Shown: piece after piece, positions 54,968-64,000 of the stretch
Numbering within the stretch: the first letter of the stretch is position 1
Layout of the letters: every line of letters begins with the position of its first letter
Source of the DNA: Nonomuraea basaltis
GTDB lineage: Bacteria; Actinomycetota; Actinomycetes; Streptosporangiales; Streptosporangiaceae
Assembly (NCBI RefSeq): GCF_005893125.1
Contig: NZ_VCJS01000027.1
Coordinates: 1 to 64,000 of the forward strand
Direction: 5' to 3'
DNA: 64,000 nucleotides
Position numbers and translations under genes: made by a program
The notes under the pieces: generated by a model
The model's database searches: none
What the model saw: only the letters and a program-made list of their open reading frames with translations
What the model was told of the DNA's origin: nothing

Positions 54968-55332
54968 GCGGGAACCCTACGCGGGGCGACCGACAAGAAG
55001 GGATGATCGGCGAAGCCAGAGAGGCCGAGCCCGCACCTCGTGCGGAAAGTGAAAGTTTCACCGGAAACTCGCAGGTGGGTGAAAGGAGCTGCATGTGCCA
55101 TTTGACGCATGACGCAGCTCGTGCGATCAAAGCTCAAGTGGGTACGGTCGTGGCTTGAATTCGGCTGCCCTCTCAACTAACTCGACGGCGGGGAACGTCG
55201 TCCGCCCGCCGGGAAGGCGTTGACCGAATCATCGGGAGCGATCTTGACATCCGCTAGCACGAGCCGGACCTTGAGGCAGCGCGCCCTTCCTCGAGGCCCA
55301 CGGCTGTTAGCGCTACCACCCGGAGACACCGC
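54968..55332. promoter_or_regulatory. divergent promoter region with GAAAGTTTC site
   Basis: There is no gene. At 55050-55060 lies TGAAAGTTTCA, identical to the site at 24816-24826, followed by CCGGAAACT. It may bring the metalloprotease at 55333, or the ATPase gene, under the same regulator as the GH3 operon. A plausible -35 TTGAAT with TAACTC at 17 bp lies near 55160-55180. Confidence 0.4.
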
Positions 55333-56583
55333 ATGAAACGTCTGGCGATCCTGCCCCTCCTCTTGATCACCTGCTTCCTGCTGCCCGTCGAGAGCGCCTT
55401 GGCCGACACGAACGTGGCCAGGTCGGCGACCGCGTCGGCCTCGTACACCTCGCCGTGGGAGAGCGTCGCGGCGATCAACGACGGCATCGACCCGCCCAGC
55501 TCCAACGACACCGTCAACCGCCGCTGGGGCACCTGGCCCAACACCGGCACCCAATGGGCCGAGCTGACCTGGCCCTCCGCCCAGAACCTCCGATCCGCCG
55601 ACATCTACTTCTTCGACGACGGCGGCGGCGTCCGTCTGCCCGCCTCCTGGAAGCTCCAGCGTTGGACCGGCAGTGCGTACGCCGACATCCCCGGCACGTA
55701 CCCGGCCGCCGTCAACGCCTACAACACGGTCACCTTCGCGCAGGTCAGCACCACGCGGCTGCGGGTGGTCCTGCAGAGCGGCCAGGCGTCGGTCGGGCTG
55801 CTGGAGGTCAAGGCGTTCACCCCCGACTCGGGCGGAGGCACGAGCGGCTGGAACCCGCCCGCCAACCTGGTCGTCCCGCTCAACGAGGTGTGGCAGCACC
55901 AGGAGAGCACGTACCCGAACCTGTACGGGTTCCGCAACTACGGCTGGGACCAGATCATGGCCAACGGCGGCTCGATCAACTACTGCGTGCGCTGGGACAC
56001 CAGCGCCACGGTGACCGCCGCCCAGCGTGACCAGATCCACGCCACGCTGGCCCGCCAGTTCAAGAAGTGGATGGACGTCATGGCCGGCCACAACGGGTGG
56101 CCGTACGCGAACGTGCCGCTCAAGGTGGTGGGCTGGGCCGTCCGCGACCGCGCCCAGCTCCAGTGGAGCGACACCTCCGTCGACATCTACGTGAACAACA
56201 TTCGCGAGAACGCGCCGCAGTGCGCCGAGCCGTGCGGCCGCTTCTTCAACCAGAGCGGCAACTACCCGAACTGCCCGGGCGGCCCGTCCCACCACTACGA
56301 CATGTCGCTCTGGCTGACCGCGGGCTTCGGCGGCGGCGCCGGGGGCGACTGGGGGCAGCGGCTCGGCAGCGAGTACTACATGTCCAACCTCAACACCGAC
56401 AACATGCACATCCTGCTGCATGAGATGGGCCACTCGTTCGGCCTGGACGACTTCTACGACTGGACGCCGACCGGGGTGTGCTGCTTCCTCATGAAGGCGG
56501 GCAGCGCGACGTCGATCACGGAGTTCGACGCGTGGATGTTCCGCGACTGGTGGCGCCACCTGAAGAGCCGCTACGGCCTCTGA
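55333..56583 (+). CDS. secreted discoidin-linked HExxH metalloprotease
   Basis: CCCGGAGACACC precedes ATG 55333. The 416 residues have a signal peptide (LAILPLLLITCFLLPVESAL) and an F5/8 type C (discoidin) module at about 27-160 (SYTSPWESVAAINDGIDPPS, SVGLLEVKAF). A metalloprotease-like domain follows with HEMGHSFGLDDFYDW (about 362-376): HExxH, a Gly, and a third ligand Asp. Six Cys near the site (CAEPCGRFFNQ; GVCCFLM) suggest disulphides. The discoidin module should bind carbohydrate. It is convergent with two other metalloprotease genes. Confidence 0.8.
   Translation: MKRLAILPLLLITCFLLPVESALADTNVARSATASASYTSPWESVAAINDGIDPPSSNDTVNRRWGTWPNTGTQWAELTWPSAQNLRSADIYFFDDGGGVRLPASWKLQRWTGSAYADIPGTYPAAVNAYNTVTFAQVSTTRLRVVLQSGQASVGLLEVKAFTPDSGGGTSGWNPPANLVVPLNEVWQHQESTYPNLYGFRNYGWDQIMANGGSINYCVRWDTSATVTAAQRDQIHATLARQFKKWMDVMAGHNGWPYANVPLKVVGWAVRDRAQLQWSDTSVDIYVNNIRENAPQCAEPCGRFFNQSGNYPNCPGGPSHHYDMSLWLTAGFGGGAGGDWGQRLGSEYYMSNLNTDNMHILLHEMGHSFGLDDFYDWTPTGVCCFLMKAGSATSITEFDAWMFRDWWRHLKSRYGL
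55433..55634. repeat. 202-bp perfect inverted repeat, left arm
   Basis: This segment inside the discoidin module is identical base for base to the reverse complement of 58353-58554. Identity stops sharply at both ends. Neither copy shows a single change over 202 bp, including third codon positions. Confidence 0.95.
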
Positions 56584-56646: not shown

Positions 56647-58146
56647 TCAGGCCACGGTGAGGGTGTACTCGCGGGTGACGGGAGCGCTCAGCTTGTCGTA
56701 GTCCCTGAGCTGCACGGTGAACTTGTACGACCCGGCCGCGGCCGGCTTGCCGATGATCGCGCCGGTGAACCTGTCGAGGGTCAGCCCCTCGGGCAGCGCC
56801 CCGCGCACGACCTGCCAGTCGTAGAACGGCACGCCGCCCTTGGCCCGCAGCCGCTGCTCGTACCCGGCCCCGGCCGTCCCCGCCGGCAGCTCCGCCGTCT
56901 CGATCGAGGGCTTGAGGAACGGGGTCAGGCTCCTGTTCAGCTTCCACCCGGCGTTCTCGGCGATCAGGAGCGTCAGCTTGGTCAGCTCCCACCGGCGCGT
57001 CGGGAAGTGGTGCCGCCAGCCGCCGTTCTGGCCGCTGAGCCGGTCCCAGTACGGCTCGTCCGCGGGCACGTGGTAGCTGGTGTCGAGCGGGACGGGATAG
57101 CCCTGGTAGTCGATGACGTCCTGGTCGTCCCTGCCCTTGGACGCCACGTAGCCGGCCATGCCCTTCCAGTCGCTGTGGAAGGCGACCGCGTGGCCGTACT
57201 CGTGCATGACCAGGCCCTGCACGTCGATCACCTGGCCGAGGTCGGTCTTGTACCAGTCCTCGTCGTTCAGGGAGGTGAACAGCTTCATGAGTTGCTCGTC
57301 GTACTCGAGGATCATGCTGGTCGAGCGGTGGTACGGAGTGGGCTCGCCGTTCCTGGTGTGGAACTTGCCGTTGATCGTCGGGTAGCCGGTCGAGTACGGG
57401 GTCTGGATGCCGCGGAAGAACACGTACATGCCGTTGTACGGCTCGGCGTTCGTCGCCTCGACCTCGTTCTGCCAGTCGTCGCCCGGCAGCCGGTTGACCT
57501 CGTCGCCCGCCGGGACCGTGTCGAACGGCTCCAGGTCGAAGAAGGCGAACCAGTTCCGTACCGCGCTCTCGGCTGCCTCGCGCACGCCGCGGTCGGAGAA
57601 GTAGCCGGTGATCGTGTCGTACCGGTAGTCGAAGTCGATCGGGATGGCCGGCTCAAGCGGGGTCTTCTCGTCCTGCTGCACCCTGATCGGCATCGTCTGC
57701 GTGCGCCTGGCGCCGGTCGCGTCGGTGGTCTTCATGACCCACTGGTGCAGCTCGTCGCGGCCCGCGCCCTGCATGGAGTGGATGGCCAGCCGCACGGTCT
57801 CGCGGTCGGCCGGGCCGGTCAGGGTGAACGACTTGGTGGCGCCGGTGGCGGTCAGCTCGCTCGGCATGTTGAGCATAAGCCTGGAGGTGCCCTTGGCGTG
57901 CAGGTCGACCTTCAGTGGATAGGAGATCCCGGGCACTTTCGGCGCCCGTACGGTCAGCTCGACGTACGGGTTGGCCAGGTAGCCCTGCCAGTCCACGAGC
58001 TGGACGCCGTAGTCGTTCACCTTGCGGAAGAAGATGTCGTAGACCTCCAGCGCGGGCGCCTCCCGTCGGGCGGCGAGGCTGGGGGAGGGGGCGGACACCG
58101 CGCCGGCCAGGGCGGCCAGCGCGGCGAGGGTGGTGATCTTCCTCAT
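56647..58146 (-). CDS. secreted HExxH metalloprotease-like protein without discoidin module
   Basis: GGAAGGG precedes ATG 58146. The 499 residues start with a signal peptide (LAALAALAGAVSAPSPSLAA) and an N-terminal beta domain (NDYGVQLVDWQGYLANPYVE). The catalytic-like domain has LVMHEYGHAVAFHSDW (about 313-328), so HExxH plus a third His. A C-terminal putative-Ig domain follows (LPEGLTLDRFTGAIIGKPAA). It is a close paralogue of the next gene upstream, which additionally has a discoidin module. The 16-bp gap suggests the two are co-transcribed. Confidence 0.8.
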   Translation of the reverse strand: MRKITTLAALAALAGAVSAPSPSLAARREAPALEVYDIFFRKVNDYGVQLVDWQGYLANPYVELTVRAPKVPGISYPLKVDLHAKGTSRLMLNMPSELTATGATKSFTLTGPADRETVRLAIHSMQGAGRDELHQWVMKTTDATGARRTQTMPIRVQQDEKTPLEPAIPIDFDYRYDTITGYFSDRGVREAAESAVRNWFAFFDLEPFDTVPAGDEVNRLPGDDWQNEVEATNAEPYNGMYVFFRGIQTPYSTGYPTINGKFHTRNGEPTPYHRSTSMILEYDEQLMKLFTSLNDEDWYKTDLGQVIDVQGLVMHEYGHAVAFHSDWKGMAGYVASKGRDDQDVIDYQGYPVPLDTSYHVPADEPYWDRLSGQNGGWRHHFPTRRWELTKLTLLIAENAGWKLNRSLTPFLKPSIETAELPAGTAGAGYEQRLRAKGGVPFYDWQVVRGALPEGLTLDRFTGAIIGKPAAAGSYKFTVQLRDYDKLSAPVTREYTLTVA

Positions 58147-58162: not shown

Positions 58163-60124
58163 TCAGGAATAAGCCTTCACTTCGAGCAGCCCGACCGAGC
58201 CCGCCCCGCTCTGGAGCGCGACCCGGAGCCTGGTCGTGGTCACGGCGTTGAACGTGACCCGGTTGTAGGCGTTCAGCGCGGTGGAGTAGGTGCCGGGGAT
58301 GTCGGCGTAGGAGTTGCCGGTCCACTGCTGGAGCTTCCAGGAGGCGGGTACGCGGACGCCGCCGCCGTCGTCGAAGAAGTAGATGTCGGCGGATCGGAGG
58401 TTCTGGGCGGAGGGCCAGGTCAGCTCGGCCCATTGGGTGCCGGTGTTGGGCCAGGTGCCCCAGCGGCGGTTGACGGTGTCGTTGGAGCTGGGCGGGTCGA
58501 TGCCGTCGTTGATCGCCGCGACGCTCTCCCACGGCGAGGTGTACGAGGCCGACGGCGTCGCGCTCCCGGCCACGTTCATCGGCGTGCCGCCGCCGTTCCC
58601 GACGGTAAGTGTGAACGTCCTGGTCACCGGCGTGCTGAGCCGATCGTAGTCCCTGAGCTGGAGGGTGAACGTGGACGTGCCGGCCGTGCTCGGCGTGCCG
58701 GTGATGGCGCCGGTGAAGCGGTCGAGGCTCAGCCCGGCGGGCAGCGACCCGCTGGTGATCTGCCAGTCGTAGAAGGGGACGCCGCCCTTGGCGGCGAGCG
58801 TCTGCTGGTAGGCGGTGCCCGGCGTGGCCTGGGGGAGCGAGGTGGTGACGATGGACGGCGGCAGGAACGGGGTGAGGTTGCGGTTGAGCCGCCAGCCCGC
58901 GTTCTCGGCCACCAGCAGGGCCAGCTTGGTCAGCATCCACCTGCGGGTGGGGAACAGGTGCGTCCAGCCGCCGCTCTGCCCGCTGAGCCGATCCCAGTAA
59001 CGCTGCTCGCCGGGGATGTGATAGCTCCCGTCGAGGGGCACGGCGTAGCCCTGATACGCGACCACGTCCGGGTCGTTGCCGCCTGCGGACACGTAAGAGC
59101 GCATCCCGGCCCAGTCGCTGTGGAAGGCGACCGCGTGGCCGTACTCGTGCATGACCAGGCCGTGCACGTCGAGCACCGAGCCCTGGATCTCCGTCTTGTA
59201 CCAGTCTTCGTCGGCCAGGGAGGTGAACAGCTGCTTGCCGGCCTCGTCGTACTCGAAGATCATCGCGGTGGAGCGGTGCAGCGGGCCCGGGAGCTGCTGG
59301 CCGTTCCTGGTGCTGTAGCGGCCGTTGGCGGCGGGGTAGCCGGTCGAGTACGGGGTCTGGATGCCGCGGAAGAACACGTACATGCCGTTGTAGGCGGCGT
59401 TGTTGGTCACGTTTATGGTGTTCTGCCAGTCGTTGCCCGGCAGGTGGTTGGGCTCCGCCCCGGCCGCCACGGTGTCGAACGGCTGCATGTCGAAGAACCG
59501 GAACCAGTCCTTCACCGCCTCCTCCGCCGCCGTCTTGAAGGCCGCGTCGGAGAAGTATCCGGTGATCGTGTCGTACCGGTAGTCGAACGCGAGCGGCAGG
59601 CTCGGCTGCAGCGCGGTCTTCTCGTCCTGCTGCACCCTGATCGGCATGGACTGCTGGTACGTCGCGCCGTCGGCGTCCCGGATGTTCAGTCTCAGTGTGT
59701 AACTTTCATCCTGGCCCGGGCCGCGCTTGGAGTGGATCGCGAGCTTGAACGGCTTCTGCTCGGCGGCGCCGGCGAACGTGAGGGTCTTGGTCGCGCCCGT
59801 GGCGGTGAGCTGGCTGGGCACGTCCATCATCAGTCTGGAGGTGCCCTCGGCCTTCAGGTCGACGGTGACGGGGTAGCGCACGTCGGGCGGGGGTTTGACG
59901 GTGAGCTCGACGTACGGGTTGGCGAGGTATCCCTGCCAGTCCACCAGCTTGACGCCGTAGTCGTTGACGGTCCTGCCGAACATGTCCACCACCGTGGCGG
60001 TGGGGGCTGCGGCGTGCGCGGACTGCGGCACGCTGGTGAGTAAGGAGGCTAATAGAACTGCCGCGACGGTCAGTCGCCTGGCGCCCTTCGCGGCTCTCGG
60101 GGCGCGGCGGCATCCTTGGTCCAT
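58163..60124 (-). CDS. secreted HExxH metalloprotease-like protein with C-terminal discoidin module
   Basis: GAGGAGTCCGG precedes ATG 60124. The 653 residues have a signal peptide (RLTVAAVLLASLLTSVPQSA, cleavage near AHAAA) and an N-terminal beta domain (FGRTVNDYGVKLVDWQGYLA). The metalloprotease-like domain carries LVMHEYGHAVAFHSDWAGMR at about 325-344 and the family marker FFRGIQTPYSTGYPA. A putative-Ig domain (LPAGLSLDRFTGAITGTPST) and a C-terminal discoidin module (SYTSPWESVAAINDGIDPPS) follow. The promoter and operator lie directly upstream and match those of GH127. Substrate unknown; probably a glycoprotein. Confidence 0.82.
   Translation of the reverse strand: MDQGCRRAPRAAKGARRLTVAAVLLASLLTSVPQSAHAAAPTATVVDMFGRTVNDYGVKLVDWQGYLANPYVELTVKPPPDVRYPVTVDLKAEGTSRLMMDVPSQLTATGATKTLTFAGAAEQKPFKLAIHSKRGPGQDESYTLRLNIRDADGATYQQSMPIRVQQDEKTALQPSLPLAFDYRYDTITGYFSDAAFKTAAEEAVKDWFRFFDMQPFDTVAAGAEPNHLPGNDWQNTINVTNNAAYNGMYVFFRGIQTPYSTGYPAANGRYSTRNGQQLPGPLHRSTAMIFEYDEAGKQLFTSLADEDWYKTEIQGSVLDVHGLVMHEYGHAVAFHSDWAGMRSYVSAGGNDPDVVAYQGYAVPLDGSYHIPGEQRYWDRLSGQSGGWTHLFPTRRWMLTKLALLVAENAGWRLNRNLTPFLPPSIVTTSLPQATPGTAYQQTLAAKGGVPFYDWQITSGSLPAGLSLDRFTGAITGTPSTAGTSTFTLQLRDYDRLSTPVTRTFTLTVGNGGGTPMNVAGSATPSASYTSPWESVAAINDGIDPPSSNDTVNRRWGTWPNTGTQWAELTWPSAQNLRSADIYFFDDGGGVRVPASWKLQQWTGNSYADIPGTYSTALNAYNRVTFNAVTTTRLRVALQSGAGSVGLLEVKAYS
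58353..58554. repeat. 202-bp perfect inverted repeat, right arm
   Basis: Reverse complement of 55433-55634 without mismatch. It lies within the discoidin module of the minus-strand metalloprotease gene. The arms are separated by about 2.7 kb. Confidence 0.95.
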
Positions 60125-60138
60125 CCGGACTCCTCAAG

Positions 60139-60193
60139 GTTGGGAATAGGTTTTCCCAACGCGCACGGTAAGGTGTTACACAGCACCGGTCAA
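60139..60193 (-). promoter_or_regulatory. promoter and LacI-type operator of the metalloprotease operon
   Basis: On the minus strand: -35 TTGACC (60193-60188), 17-bp spacer, -10 TACCGT (60170-60165). The operator is a palindrome with arms GTTGGGAA and TTCCCAAC around TAGGTT (60139-60160). The 20-bp core TTGGGAATAGGTTTTCCCAA matches the site before GH127 at 18 of 20 positions. ACACCTTAC at the -10 is also shared. Confidence 0.75.
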
Positions 60194-60274
60194 CCCTCCC
60201 CGCTCCGGGCCGTCGCGGCCCCGGAGCCGCCCCATGTCCGCTGATGCCGATACATCAAACCGGAAAGTGGCGGC

Positions 60275-61501
60275 TCAGTCGTCGTGGGCGATGTGCATGA
60301 GCTGCCGCCACAGCAGCACCACGAACACCGCGGAGCCGGCGAAGGCGAACCAGAACGGCGCCGCGACGCCGAAGCGGGTGGCCAGAACACCGCCGATCAG
60401 CGAGCCGACCACCAGGCCGGCGTAGACGCAGATGGTGTTGACGCTGCCCACCCGGCCCTGCAGCTCGCGCGGGACCGCGCGCTGGCGGATGGTGACCGAG
60501 GTCGTGCCCCATATGAACGCGTGCGCGCCGAAGACCAGGAAGATGCCCCCGGCGACCCACGGCGAACGGGTCAGGGCCAGGCCCAAGTGGGTGAACGTTT
60601 CGATGATGAGCCCGATCCGCATCAGGGCGCCGAGGCTCACCCTGCGGGTGATGGCCCCGTACAGGCCGGTGCCGATCAGGCCGCCGATCCCGCCGATGGT
60701 GGTCATCAGGCCGAAGCCGATGGCGCCGAGGCCGAGCTGCTCCTGGGTGTAGAGGACGAGAACCGACCAGGCCGCGCCGAAGGTGAAGTTGAAGATCAGG
60801 ATCGTGAGCGCCAGCGTGCGGACCGCCGCATGCCGGATGGTCCAGCTGAACCCGGCGATGAGTTCCCGTACGGTGTCGGGCTTGGGATCGGCGCCCTGTC
60901 GGCCGTGCGGCGGCAACGTGAGCCGGGAGACCAGGACGATCCCCGCCACCACCAGGAGCAGCTGGCCCGCGAACGGCCAGGTGAAGCCCAGGCCGAACAG
61001 CGCCGCGCCGATCGGCGGCCCGGCAAGCTGATTGAGCGTGATGAACCCCGTGCCCAGGCGGGCGTTGGCGATGACGAGATCGTCCTTGCTGACCATCATG
61101 GGCGTCAGCGTGGCCGTCGCGTTGTCGGCGAACACCTCGGCGATGGACCGGAGCGTGAGCGCCACCAGCGCCGTCACCACGGTCACCGTGCCGGTCACCA
61201 TGAGCACGACGAGTGCCGCCAGCACCAGAGCCCGCACCGCGTTCGCGACGAGCACGATCCTGCGCCGGTCGTGCCGATCCGACAGCACGCCCGCATACAG
61301 GCTGAACAGCAGCGGCGGCGCCCAGCCCGCCAGGGCCGACAGCGAGATCATCAGTGGATCGCGGGTCAACGTCGCGATCAGCAGCGGGCCTGCGGCGGCC
61401 GCGACCCCGTCACCGAGATTCGTCAGCCAGCTCGACGCCAGCAACCATCGGAATCCTGTCCCCAGGCGGGCAGGCAGGATCCTCTCCACCACTGTGATCA
61501 C
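60275..61501 (-). CDS. MFS transporter
   Basis: GTG 61501 is the first start in frame. The 408 residues have 12 membrane helices and the loop motif GVLSDRHDRRRIVLVANAVR (motif A-like) between helices 2 and 3. The style is that of the drug/macrolide exporter group. It sits between the LacI gene and the metalloproteases, all on the minus strand. Its substrate may be a sugar or peptide released by the neighbouring hydrolases, but export of an unrelated compound is just as likely. Confidence 0.85.
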   Translation of the reverse strand: MITVVERILPARLGTGFRWLLASSWLTNLGDGVAAAAGPLLIATLTRDPLMISLSALAGWAPPLLFSLYAGVLSDRHDRRRIVLVANAVRALVLAALVVLMVTGTVTVVTALVALTLRSIAEVFADNATATLTPMMVSKDDLVIANARLGTGFITLNQLAGPPIGAALFGLGFTWPFAGQLLLVVAGIVLVSRLTLPPHGRQGADPKPDTVRELIAGFSWTIRHAAVRTLALTILIFNFTFGAAWSVLVLYTQEQLGLGAIGFGLMTTIGGIGGLIGTGLYGAITRRVSLGALMRIGLIIETFTHLGLALTRSPWVAGGIFLVFGAHAFIWGTTSVTIRQRAVPRELQGRVGSVNTICVYAGLVVGSLIGGVLATRFGVAAPFWFAFAGSAVFVVLLWRQLMHIAHDD

Positions 61502-61506
61502 GAGCG

Positions 61507-61523
61507 CAAAACCATACGTTTTG
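61507..61523. promoter_or_regulatory. palindrome CAAAAC-catac-GTTTTG before the MFS gene
   Basis: Perfect 6-bp arms lie 5 bp from the MFS start codon. The site could be bound by an unknown repressor. It differs from the GGGAATAGGTTTTC operator. Confidence 0.4.
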
Positions 61524-61825
61524 GGGCGATCTGTGGCAACACGTTTTCGCGTCTACGCGCTATGCCGGACGGTCGCGGCAGGCGCGCGGAAAAGCGCGTG
61601 CCGGGCGCTGTTCGCCCGCTAGGCGCAGACGCGCCCGCGTCCGGGATGAGCCGGTGGGGGTCGGACTTGGTGGATGTTCGGGCCCCGCACAAACGAATCT
61701 ACAACGTAAAGGCGCTCGGCCTGTTCAATGCCGTCAACGGACATACGGGTCTCACCACGCTGAATCCGCACACCAACGGCCAGGAAGATCGGCCGGCGGT
61801 GTCGGCCGGGGCGGGGCGGCGGGCG
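61524..61825. other. intergenic, no gene seen
   Basis: The left half is a GC-rich region with short stems. The right half has a comparatively A-rich segment (acaaacgaatctacaacg) but no good start or frame. Confidence 0.35.
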
Positions 61826-62857
61826 TCAGGACGCGGCGCGTCGTGTGGACTCCCGCAGCACCAGACTGGCGGGGACGATCGTCACCCCGCCACCGGATGT
61901 CTGGCCGGCGATGGCGTCCAGCAGGTGCCGGGCCGCCAGCCGGCCGATCTCGCCCAGGTTCATGTCCACGGTCGTCAGCGGCGGCCGGCAGCCCAGCGCC
62001 ATCGGCTCCCAGTTGTCGAACCCCACCAGCGCCACGTCCTCGGGAACCCGCCGCCCCCGCTCCCGCAGCGTCTCGGCCACCCCGCGGGCGATCTGGTCGC
62101 TGCCGCAGAAGACGGCGTCCACGTCGGGCGCGGCGTGCAGCAGCACGTCGGCGCCCTGCCGCCCCCACTCCTCGCTCCACTGCCCGAAAAGGATCTCCCC
62201 GGCCGGCTCGAGGCCGGCCTCGGACAGGGCGGTGCTCAGCCCGTGTGCCCGCCGGCGCGCCGCCTGGAACCGCTGCGGCCCGGTGACATGCCCGATGCGG
62301 GTGCGGCCGGTCGCCAGCAGGTGGCGGGCGGCCAGCGCCCCGCCGCCCTCGTCGTCCGGGATGATCGACACGTCCCCCTCGTCGGTGGACTGCGTCATGG
62401 CGTAGACGACGGGGACCGGCAGGTCACGGCCGATGCCGGGGCGCGGCTCGGTGCGCCGGCCGGTGACGATGATGCCCTCGACGCGCCTGGCCAGCAGCCG
62501 TTCGACGTAGTGGCGTTCCCTGATCGGGTCGTCGCGCGTGTCGCACATGAACACCGAGATCTTCCCGGCGCCGAGCGCGTCCTCCGCGCCCAGCATCACC
62601 GGGATGCTGAAGCGCCCGAAGCTGTCGCCCGTGACCAGGCCGACCGTGTACGTGCGCCCGGCCAGCAGGCCCTGGGCGAGCGGGTTGGGCCGGAAGCCGA
62701 GCCGCTCGGCGGCGGCGAGCACCCGGTCGCGGGTCTCCGCGCGCATCCGGCCCCGGCCGTTGAGCGCTTTGGAGGCGGTGCCGATCGACACGTCGGCGGC
62801 CGCCGCGACGTCCCTGATCGTGACGGTTCTCGTAGTCCCTTGGGAGGGGCTGGTCAA
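61826..62857 (-). CDS. LacI-family transcriptional regulator
   Basis: The only good start is TTG 62857, with GAAAGGGG 6-7 nt upstream. The 343 residues have the LacI HTH at 14-33 (VTIRDVAAAADVSIGTASKA) with hinge NPLAQGLLAG, and a periplasmic-binding-protein-like effector domain (VGLVTGDSFGRFSIPVMLGA, VALVGFDNWEPMALGCRPPL). It diverges from GH127, with the operator between them, so it probably represses both GH127 and the metalloproteases until an arabinose-type oligosaccharide binds. Confidence 0.88.
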   Translation of the reverse strand: MTSPSQGTTRTVTIRDVAAAADVSIGTASKALNGRGRMRAETRDRVLAAAERLGFRPNPLAQGLLAGRTYTVGLVTGDSFGRFSIPVMLGAEDALGAGKISVFMCDTRDDPIRERHYVERLLARRVEGIIVTGRRTEPRPGIGRDLPVPVVYAMTQSTDEGDVSIIPDDEGGGALAARHLLATGRTRIGHVTGPQRFQAARRRAHGLSTALSEAGLEPAGEILFGQWSEEWGRQGADVLLHAAPDVDAVFCGSDQIARGVAETLRERGRRVPEDVALVGFDNWEPMALGCRPPLTTVDMNLGEIGRLAARHLLDAIAGQTSGGGVTIVPASLVLRESTRRAAS

Positions 62858-62901
62858 CCGATTCCCCTTTCGCGATCACACCTTAACGCGCGGGATCACT
62901 C

Positions 62902-62963
62902 TTGACCCGTGGTGTATCACACCTTACTCTCCGGTTGAGAAAACCTATTCCCATGTTTTCTCA
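62902..62963 (+). promoter_or_regulatory. promoter and LacI-type operator of GH127
   Basis: -35 TTGACC (62902-62907), 17-bp spacer, -10 TACTCT (62925-62930). Over the expected start lies the operator: the reverse strand of 62935-62954 reads ATGGGAATAGGTTTTCTCAA. A wider palindrome TGAGAAAAC-N10-GTTTTCTCA spans 62936-62963. Direct repeats of ATCACACCTTA (about 62876 and 62917) flank the -35. Confidence 0.75.
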
Positions 62964-62981: not shown

Positions 62982-64000
62982 TTGGAACAGATCCTTGGTC
63001 CCGCCGTACCCTCCAGCCGGGCGGTGTGGCGGCCCCTCGGCATCCCGCACGTCGCCATCACCGGCGGGCCGTTCGCGCGCTGGCAGCGGATCAACCACGA
63101 GGCGAGCATCCCGCTGGGCCTGGAGCAGATGGAGCGCTCGGGCGCGCTGCCCAACCTGCGGCGCGCCGGAGCTCGGGCGGGCGAGGGCGACGGGCCCTTC
63201 CAGGGCTACCGGTTCCAGGATTCCGACCTCTACAAGCAGCTCGAGGCCGTGGCGTGGGAGCACGCCCGCGCCCCGGAGACCCGGTACGCGGAGTTCATCG
63301 AGCAGGCGGCGGCGGTGCTGGCCAGGGCGCAGCGGCCCGACGGCTACCTCAACTCGCACTATCAGGTCGTCAAACCAGACAAGATCTACGCCGAGCTCGA
63401 GTACAGCCACGAGCTGTACTGCGCCGGCCACCTGTTCCAGGCCGCGGTGGCGGCCGCCCGCGCCGGCGTCGGCGACAGCCTGCTCGCGGTCGCCCGCCGC
63501 TTCGCCGACCACCTGGTCGAGGTGTTCCTCACCGGCGGGAACGACGGCATCGACGGCCATGCGGAGGTCGAGACCGCGCTGGTCGAGCTGCACCGGCTGA
63601 CCGGCGAGCGGGCCTATCTGGAGCTGGCCGGCAAGCTGATCGACAACCGCGGCAAGGGCCTGATCGCCGACAGCGGCATGGGCATGCTGTACGCCCAGGA
63701 CCACCTGCCGGTACGTGAGGCCGACACCCCGGTAGGGCACGCCGTGCGCCAGCTCTACCTGGAGGCCGGCATCGTCGACGTCTACCTGGAGACGGGCGAC
63801 GAGTCGCTGCTGGAGTGCTCGGTTCGGCGCTGGGAGGACATGGTCGCCACCAAGACGTACATCACCGGTGGCCACGGCTCGCGCCACGACGGCGAGGCGT
63901 TCGGCGAGCGCTACGAGCTGCCGCCCGACCGCGCCTACAGCGAGAGCTGCGCGGCCATCGCGAGCATCCACTGGAACTGGCGGCTGCTGCTGGCCACCGG
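62982..64000 (+). CDS. GH127 beta-L-arabinofuranosidase (3' partial)
   Basis: TTG 62982 has GAGGAG 5 nt upstream. The visible 339 residues begin the alpha/alpha barrel of GH127: WRPLGIPHVAITGGPFARWQ, SDLYKQLEAVAWEHARAPET and RAQRPDGYLNSHYQVVKPDK. Near the edge come GEAFGERYELPPDRAYSESC and AAIASIHWNWRLLLATG. The Glu of GEAFGE matches the family's acid, and Glu-x-Cys matches the first zinc ligands. The cysteine nucleophile and C-terminal beta domains lie beyond the window. No signal peptide, so it acts on imported oligosaccharides. Known relatives remove beta-L-arabinofuranose from hydroxyproline-linked glycans. Confidence 0.88.
   Translation, partial: MEQILGPAVPSSRAVWRPLGIPHVAITGGPFARWQRINHEASIPLGLEQMERSGALPNLRRAGARAGEGDGPFQGYRFQDSDLYKQLEAVAWEHARAPETRYAEFIEQAAAVLARAQRPDGYLNSHYQVVKPDKIYAELEYSHELYCAGHLFQAAVAAARAGVGDSLLAVARRFADHLVEVFLTGGNDGIDGHAEVETALVELHRLTGERAYLELAGKLIDNRGKGLIADSGMGMLYAQDHLPVREADTPVGHAVRQLYLEAGIVDVYLETGDESLLECSVRRWEDMVATKTYITGGHGSRHDGEAFGERYELPPDRAYSESCAAIASIHWNWRLLLAT

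What the first reader, a model, noticed from the sequence alone, without database searches (positions are those of the whole stretch)
60139..62963. A shared promoter and operator joins GH127 to secreted metalloproteases: a possible LacI-controlled system for arabinosylated plant glycoproteins
Two control regions about 2.8 kb apart have the same layout: TTGACC, 17 bp, TAC-x-x-T, then a palindromic box. The boxes TTGGGAATAGGTTTTCCCAA (60140-60159) and, on the reverse strand, ATGGGAATAGGTTTTCTCAA (62935-62954) agree at 18 of 20 bases. ACACCTTAC is also common to both. One controls GH127, the other an operon of two secreted HExxH proteins, one with a discoidin module. A LacI gene lies between. GH127 enzymes cut beta-L-arabinofuranosides of hydroxyproline-rich glycoproteins, so co-induction with proteases suggests a full extensin- or AGP-degrading unit, which I do not know to be described.
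Basis: partly seen in the sequence, partly recalled or inferred. Interest (0 to 1): 0.8.

Follow-up and report, generated by a model that had tools for sequence, protein, structure and literature searches.

The report
Arabinoside regulon with secreted metalloproteases
In a soil actinomycete, genes for taking up and cutting an unusual plant-protein sugar share a conserved DNA switch with genes for secreted, probably protein-cutting enzymes, so the bacterium may strip both sugar and protein from plant cell-wall glycoproteins as one program.

Summary
In detail: both 20-bp boxes are as stated (18 of 20 bases alike), lie over the expected transcription starts of matched promoters, and have no other copy within 2 mismatches in the 14.3-Mb genome. 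GH127 heads an operon with a sugar ABC importer (beyond the window).

In 54 Nonomuraea genomes the box occurs 19 times, always before GH127 (12) or metalloprotease MP1 (7). Where MP1 lies in the GH127 operon it has no box of its own. Where it left the operon it carries an operator: box-1 in one clade, box-2 in another. Box-2 (75 exact sites) otherwise precedes a second LacI/ABC locus (44) and HypBA2 (GH121) operons (23); one site is unassigned. MP1's carbohydrate-binding-type module occurs in this genome only on MP1, DM3 and two HypBA2-type gene sets. All 23 MP1-positive genomes of 250 in the family have HypBA2, which 45 have.

Best reading: a beta-arabino-oligosaccharide regulon (Bifidobacterium BauR/HypBA type) extended by secreted metzincin-like proteases, for extensin-type glycoproteins. 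LacI binding, proteolysis and substrate are inferred. Against: box-1 persists at GH127 in 6 of 7 clade-C loci that lack this LacI. New variant of a known kind.

The parts
60140..60159 (-). box-1 operator of the MP1-MP2 operon (TTGGGAAAACCTATTCCCAA read towards MP1)
   Evidence: core present at this place in 11 of 11 layout-A loci
60165..60193 (-). promoter of MP1-MP2: TTGACC 60193-60188, 17 bp, TACCGT 60170-60165
   Evidence: sequence
58163..60124 (-). MP1, 653 aa: HExxH protein with Ig-like domains and a C-terminal discoidin-like module (residues 514-653)
56647..58146 (-). MP2, 499 aa: paralogue of MP1 without the discoidin module
55333..56583 (+). DM3, 416 aa: discoidin-like module plus HExxHxxGxxD domain; likely member of the program, under a different operator
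   Evidence: no box-1-like site upstream
55305..55318 (+). box-3 (TGTTAGCGCTACCA) just upstream of DM3, one of 18 such places in the genome
61826..62857 (-). LacI-1, 343 aa, proposed repressor of both boxes
62902..62930 (+). promoter of GH127-ABC: TTGACC, 17 bp, TACTCT
   Evidence: sequence
62935..62954 (+). box-1 operator of the GH127-ABC operon (TTGAGAAAACCTATTCCCAT)
62982..64000 (+). GH127 beta-L-arabinofuranosidase-type gene; continues past the window end (627 aa), then sugar-binding protein and two permeases
60275..61501 (-). MFS transporter gene between MP1 and LacI, probably an insertion in this lineage and not part of the system
   Evidence: absent from the other 29 loci

Best explanation
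A LacI-controlled beta-L-arabino-oligosaccharide utilisation regulon that includes its own secreted metalloproteases. Outside the cell, GH43 and GH121 (HypBA2-type) enzymes would trim the Hyp-O-arabinosides of extensin-type glycoproteins while MP1, MP2 and DM3 cut the protein backbone, MP1 and DM3 being held on the substrate by a shared discoidin-like module. The ABC importer takes up beta-arabinobiose or small arabinosides and the cytoplasmic GH127 splits them to L-arabinose. LacI-1 sits on box-1 over the transcription starts of GH127-ABC and MP1-MP2 and leaves when an arabinose-type inducer appears. Shown: gene content, operators, their conservation and rewiring, module sharing, co-occurrence. 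Inferred: LacI binding, inducer, protease activity, extensin as substrate.
For: Box-1 only at GH127 (12) and MP1 (7) in 54 genomes (places compared). Operator at MP1 depends on layout: A 11 of 11 box-1, B 0 of 10, C 0 of 8; in C box-2 instead, 7 of 8 by scan and the eighth, a broken copy, by exact match. Box-2: 44 sites beside LacI-2, 23 before HypBA2, 7 before MP1, 1 unassigned, of 75; 0 for the reversed control. One-operon forms GH127-ABC-MP1(-MP2) in several genera. MP1 beside HypBA2 and/or GH43 in Acrocarpospora, Streptosporangium, Sphaerisporangium and three Nonomuraea. Module limited to 8 places on MP1, DM3, HypBA2b, its GH43 and the C666 HypBA2-like locus. 23 of 23 MP1 genomes have HypBA2 against 45 of 250.
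Against: No biochemical test. Box-1 persists at GH127 in 6 of 7 clade-C loci without LacI-1. The MP1 catalytic domain itself reaches no Pfam peptidase family and its fold was not identified; two distant relatives have HQxxH. GH127 also holds other specificities (NCBIfam's nearest model is aceric acid hydrolase, far under its cut-off). 4 of 14 MP1/MP2 loci of other genera show none of the partner genes nearby. MP1 is missing or broken in 3 of 30 GH127 genomes, one of which keeps MP2. Kinship inflates the counts: A and C are each essentially one clade.
Confidence: 0.7

Rival explanations
1. Co-regulation is real, but the metalloproteases act on something else met in the same plant debris, such as other wall proteins or lectins, or process the cell's own secreted enzymes.
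For: No substrate was tested; MP2 lacks the module; MP1 occurs without recognised partners nearby in 4 of 14 loci of other genera.
Against: The module is shared only with HypBA2-type and GH43 proteins and DM3, and every MP1 genome in the family sample has HypBA2.
Confidence: 0.2
2. MP1 and MP2 are not proteases but HExxH-bearing binding or scaffolding proteins.
For: No Pfam peptidase match for MP1 or MP2 even at E 10; HQxxH in two distant relatives; no Met-turn methionine evident (by eye).
Against: Both His of HExxH are invariant and the Glu nearly so in 29 sequences, with invariant D365 and H369 as further possible ligands; one distant relative passes the Matrixin cut-off.
Confidence: 0.12
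3. Box-1 is bound mainly by another regulator (a LacI paralogue elsewhere), not by the neighbouring LacI-1.
For: Box-1 at GH127 in 6 of 7 clade-C loci without LacI-1; LacI-1, -2 and -3 have nearly the same recognition helix and box-1 and box-2 share the core GAAAACCT.
Against: In clade A box-1 flanks LacI-1 on both sides and has no other sites in those genomes; clade C has a separate LacI-3-type box.
Confidence: 0.2
4. The two boxes are alike by chance or by recent copying of one promoter, without shared control.
For: The promoters resemble each other beyond the box.
Against: 0 of 100 shuffles; box core kept at both promoters in 11 of 11 layout-A loci; no box at MP1 when it is inside the operon.
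Confidence: 0.03

Closest known systems
BauR1 regulon (hypBA1, hypBA2, bauABC) of Bifidobacterium (PMC5928203 and PMC7263609, passages read)
   Same: LacI-family local repressor; GH127, GH121 and an ABC importer for beta-arabino-oligosaccharides of Hyp-rich glycoproteins; GH43 HypAA in the same B. longum cluster
   Different: No protease in the published regulon table (the words protease and peptidase do not occur in PMC5928203). Here secreted metalloproteases are in the regulon, and GH121/GH43 and GH127-ABC are split between paralogous LacI regulators.
Xanthomonas euvesicatoria XeHypBA1/BA2/AA (PMC6085000, passages read)
   Same: The three glycosidases, with a putative peptidase gene (predicted prolyl oligopeptidase) beside xehypAA
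   Different: Different peptidase type; HrpX-type control is reported there; no LacI operator shared with a metalloprotease is mentioned in the passages seen.
Svx extensin peptidase of Pectobacterium (PMC13164431 abstract; PMC9266454 and PMC10815107 passages)
   Same: Secreted zinc peptidase whose second domain recognises arabinan substituents of extensin; the same working idea of module-guided proteolysis
   Different: Svx is a gluzincin HEXXHX(8,28)E with an acyltransferase-like domain; MP1 and MP2 lack that Glu and MP1 has a discoidin-like module. Svx is a virulence factor; here the genes sit in a nutrient regulon.
Matrixin/metzincin peptidases
   Same: A distant MP1 relative (L130) passes the Pfam Matrixin cut-off; the catalytic profile weakly hits astacins and an MMP, E 0.17-0.5; DM3 has HExxHxxGxxD
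   Different: MP1 itself matches no peptidase family; its conserved D365 and H369 lie far downstream of HExxH

Membership tests
GH127 beta-L-arabinofuranosidase | PF07944 catalytic domain over cut-off | tested here: met
   3.2e-67, 227.6 bits against 24.9, on the part inside the window
GH127 beta-L-arabinofuranosidase | Cys/Glu zinc-site residues of HypBA1-type enzymes (motifs recalled, not from a call) | tested here: met
   ESC and CACCPPN stretches align with those of 4qjy, a solved GH127 enzyme, 1.6e-115
GH127 beta-L-arabinofuranosidase | activity on beta-1,2-arabinobiose | not testable with these tools
   needs an enzyme assay
BauR/HypBA-type beta-arabino-oligosaccharide regulon | LacI regulator with operators at hypBA1 and the importer genes | tested here: met
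   box-1 at the GH127-ABC promoter beside LacI-1; binding not shown
BauR/HypBA-type beta-arabino-oligosaccharide regulon | hypBA2 under the same regulator | tested here: not met
   In this genome GH43-HypBA2b is on C70 under box-2, and box-1 has no third place within 2 mismatches. Hence 'works like' rather than 'is' a BauR1 regulon.
BauR/HypBA-type beta-arabino-oligosaccharide regulon | orthology of LacI-1 with BauR1/BauR2 | not tested
   no BauR sequence was fetched
GH121 HypBA2 | similarity to solved HypBA2 over the catalytic region | tested here: met
   HypBA2b of this genome against 6M5A, 5.9e-184; NF041578 matches strongly, but 0 of 54 genomes exceed its 3200-bit equivalog cut-off
HypAA (GH43) | GH43 with alpha-1,3 specificity for Ara4-Hyp | not testable with these tools
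   GH43 fold by sequence (PDB hits to 7e-70; PF04616 for the L106 and L121 copies); specificity unknown, HypAA itself not compared
Svx peptidases | HEXXHX(8,28)E motif | tested here: not met
   No Glu 8-28 residues after HExxH in MP1 or MP2 (sequence)
Matrixin/metzincin peptidases | HExxHxxGxxH/D and family profile | tested here: inconclusive
   MP1 and MP2: HExxH without His/Asp at the usual third place, no family hit; relative L130: Matrixin over cut-off; DM3: motif present, profile hits under cut-off
Discoidin-like (F5/8 type C, CBM32-like) module of MP1 | fold of the family | tested here: met

The most novel reading that the evidence does not exclude
An undescribed extensin-degrading system of actinomycetes: glycosidases, importer and a new family of arabinoside-targeted secreted metalloproteases under paralogous LacI regulators. 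When the protease gene left the GH127 operon it came under an operator of one or the other arabinoside regulator (box-1 or box-2), so the wiring changed while the nutritional program stayed the same.
Probability: 0.55. Interest if true: 0.75.

Novelty: new variant of a known kind. Interest (0 to 1): 0.62.

Why it matters
How bacteria degrade extensins, the cross-linked Hyp-arabinosylated scaffold of plant walls, is known mainly from the sugar side. This regulon offers specific protease candidates with a likely arabinoside-directed module, tied to the sugar enzymes by operators, so the protein side can be tested directly. It is also a clear natural case of operator exchange between paralogous LacI regulators with the target gene kept in the same program.

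Tried and rejected
The third genome match of the box (C632, 3 mismatches) was set aside: it lies between another LacI-type gene and an oxidoreductase-type gene (by eye). DM3 as a box-1 or box-2 target: no GAAAACCTNTTC-like site within 2 mismatches in 250 bp upstream in 18 rows, which are 12 distinct genes; it has box-3 instead. DM3 structure prediction failed (mean pLDDT 40.9), so no fold search was made with it. The catalytic profiles of MP1 and DM3 compared at probability 17.5, so no relation is claimed. Svx membership was rejected on the Glu motif. My first SBP coordinates were out of frame; corrected, and nothing rests on the SBP identities. Genes outside the window were called by my own third-position G+C script, not a gene finder. 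Not counted in layouts A/B/C: L068 and L076 (no GH127 held beside MP1) and L083 and L084 (no intact MP1). In one search, 14 of the 20 Nonomuraea A and B loci were scanned, and 5 of 6 LacI-3 loci (that of G027 was not fetched). The 29 MP1 genomes used were chosen by hand: 27 full-length, G009 split and G016 in pieces; one search's own tally of 43 of 54 counts matches to the module alone. Literature searches for a GH127 or HypBA plus protease regulon; the library holds open-licence papers only.
Full report
OBSERVATION. Each follows a TTGACC-17-TANNNT promoter and covers the expected transcription start, so a bound repressor would block RNA polymerase. Shuffles give none (0 of 100), and the 14.3-Mb genome has no other copy within 2 mismatches. 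The window is part of contig C225 (92.6 kb) of a 670-contig assembly; its congeners carry the name Nonomuraea (titles).

SYNTENY. Thirty Nonomuraea loci were compared. Three layouts: A, MP1 behind LacI, which is divergent from GH127-ABC (11 loci); B, MP1 or MP2 downstream of GH127-ABC in the same direction (9 loci, plus 3 of other genera); C, MP1 divergent from GH127 without LacI between (8 loci). The other two loci (L068, L076) have no GH127 held beside MP1. Of 54 genomes 30 have the GH127 orthologue and 29 have MP1 (27 full-length, 2 broken), 27 in common. Of the three GH127 genomes without MP1, G031 keeps MP2, G013 shows remnants and G026 shows none. The GH127 tree makes C one clade; A plus the two loci without intact MP1 form one clade; B is spread over the tree and over genera.

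OPERATORS. Box-1 within 2 mismatches: 19 sites in 12 of 54 genomes, 12 at GH127 and 7 at MP1, none elsewhere (places compared). With a 16-base core and up to 3 mismatches within 150 bp: A has it at both promoters in 11 of 11; B at GH127 in 10 of 12 and at MP1 in 0 of 10; C at GH127 in 7 of 8 and at MP1 in 0 of 8. In C, MP1 has another box, CCGAAAACCTTT(T/C)AG: 7 of 8 by scan; the eighth, L082, is a broken copy with an exact site 36 bp ahead. The exact pattern TYCCGAAAACCTTTHAG occurs 75 times in the 54 genomes, 0 times for the reversed control. By place: 44 beside LacI-2, in front of an ABC operon that in L090 runs on to a second GH127 and a HypBA2; 23 within 0.9-1.6 kb upstream of a HypBA2 gene, the gap being filled by a GH43 gene where I looked (window genome, L079); 7 before MP1; 1 unassigned (G048, contig edge, 4.8 kb ahead of a HypBA2 gene). 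The pattern was drawn from MP1 and LacI-2-locus sites, so the 23 HypBA2 sites are an independent outcome. Thus in both clades where MP1 lies outside the GH127 operon it carries an arabinoside-regulon operator, box-1 in one and box-2 in the other.

REGULATOR TURNOVER. Of the 8 C loci only L064 has LacI-1. Six of the other seven belong to genomes with a further paralogue, LacI-3 (61-63% identity). A box GGMAANCGNTTKCC lies in front of LacI-3 in 4 of 5 loci tested and in the MP1-GH127 intergenic region of those six genomes (5 exact, 1 with a mismatch); in the other two C loci it is absent within 1 mismatch, and it is in 0 of 14 A and B loci tested. This suggests replacement of the regulator; yet box-1 remains at GH127 in 6 of the 7 loci without LacI-1, which is unexplained and counts against LacI-1 as its only ligand.

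SUGAR ENZYMES. HypBA2b of this genome matches solved HypBA2 (6M5A, 5.9e-184); the GH43 beside it matches GH43 structures, and identity with HypAA was not tested. HypBA2b lies within the MP1/GH127 locus in three Nonomuraea genomes (G015, G040, G041). In Acrocarpospora (L095) MP1 sits beside LacI-2, an ABC importer, a second-type GH127 and HypBA2; L099 has the same LacI, permeases and GH127. In Streptosporangium (L106) and Sphaerisporangium (L121) MP1 is in one neighbourhood with GH43 and HypBA2. Of 14 loci from other actinobacterial genera, 10 have GH127, its ABC, HypBA2 or DM3 near MP1/MP2 and 4 show none of these. In 250 genomes of the family 23 have the MP1 catalytic part (two only as fragments) and all 23 have HypBA2, against 45 overall; Fisher 2e-20, ignoring kinship. 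Outside Nonomuraea it is 11 of 11. In the genus set it is 28 of 29; the exception, G044, is an assembly of some 640 contigs.

BINDING MODULE. Searched alone (E 1e-8), MP1's module hits 8 places in the genome: MP1, DM3, HypBA2b (two), its GH43, and three at C666, where another HypBA2-like gene lies. So the module, like the operators, is confined to this program. That it binds Hyp-arabinosides is inferred; PMC7263609 (passages) suggests substrate-binding functions for the F5/8C domains of HypBA2.

PROTEASE CLASS. H326, H330, D365 and H369 are invariant in the 29 sequences aligned, E327 nearly so. A planctomycete relative passes the Pfam Matrixin cut-off and weak profile hits are to astacins and an MMP, so a metzincin-like peptidase with a distant third ligand is likely but not shown. 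Two distant relatives have HQxxH and may not be peptidases.

LITERATURE. The Bifidobacterium BauR1 regulon lists bauR, hypBA1, hypBA2 and bauABC (passages). Xanthomonas has the three glycosidases and a predicted prolyl oligopeptidase beside them (passages). Svx of Pectobacterium cleaves extensins, its second domain recognising arabinan substituents (abstract). No title or abstract start in the listings describes metalloproteases within a LacI-controlled HypBA regulon; subscription journals are mostly not held.

VERDICT. It is a known kind of sugar regulon with a new, probably protein-cutting arm; its regulator, protease activity and substrate remain to be shown at the bench.

Noticed in passing
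window 55305-55318; G000 contigs C70, C193, C225, C236, C277, C336, C339, C510, C555, C620, C635, C666: Box-3, TGTTAGCGCTAACA within 1 mismatch, at 18 places in the genome, including DM3, the GH43-HypBA2b operon, the LacI-2 locus (two) and the C666 HypBA2-like locus; many other neighbours look like secreted carbohydrate enzymes by eye. It may mark a wider arabinose or plant-polysaccharide regulator.
   Followed up: partly
L063, L065, L066, L070, L080, L082 (MP1-GH127 intergenic) and L087-L091: A LacI-3 box (GGMAANCGNTTKCC) appears at GH127 in the clade-C genomes that lack LacI-1 and have LacI-3, while box-1 also remains there.
   Followed up: partly
window 60275-61501: An MFS transporter gene separates MP1 from LacI in this genome only, among 30 loci compared.
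   Followed up: no
L120 8424-11398 (Paractinoplanes): MP1 and a DM3-type gene are divergent with two box-2-like sites (CCGAAAACCTTTTCGA/T) between them.
   Followed up: no
L107, L109, L111, L112 (Acrocarpospora catenulata, Herbidospora): MP1 orthologues without recognised partner genes nearby, but with a different palindrome, (A/C)CGAAAACGCTTTCGG, upstream.
   Followed up: no
L129, L131 (Rhodothermales, Bacteroidota MAGs): Distant MP1 relatives with HQxxH in place of HExxH, so part of the family may be inactive or act differently.
   Followed up: no
L171 (G000 C635): Another LacI, ABC importer and a gene starting like GH127 with two box-3 sites, next to a 1209-aa secreted protein (by eye).
   Followed up: no
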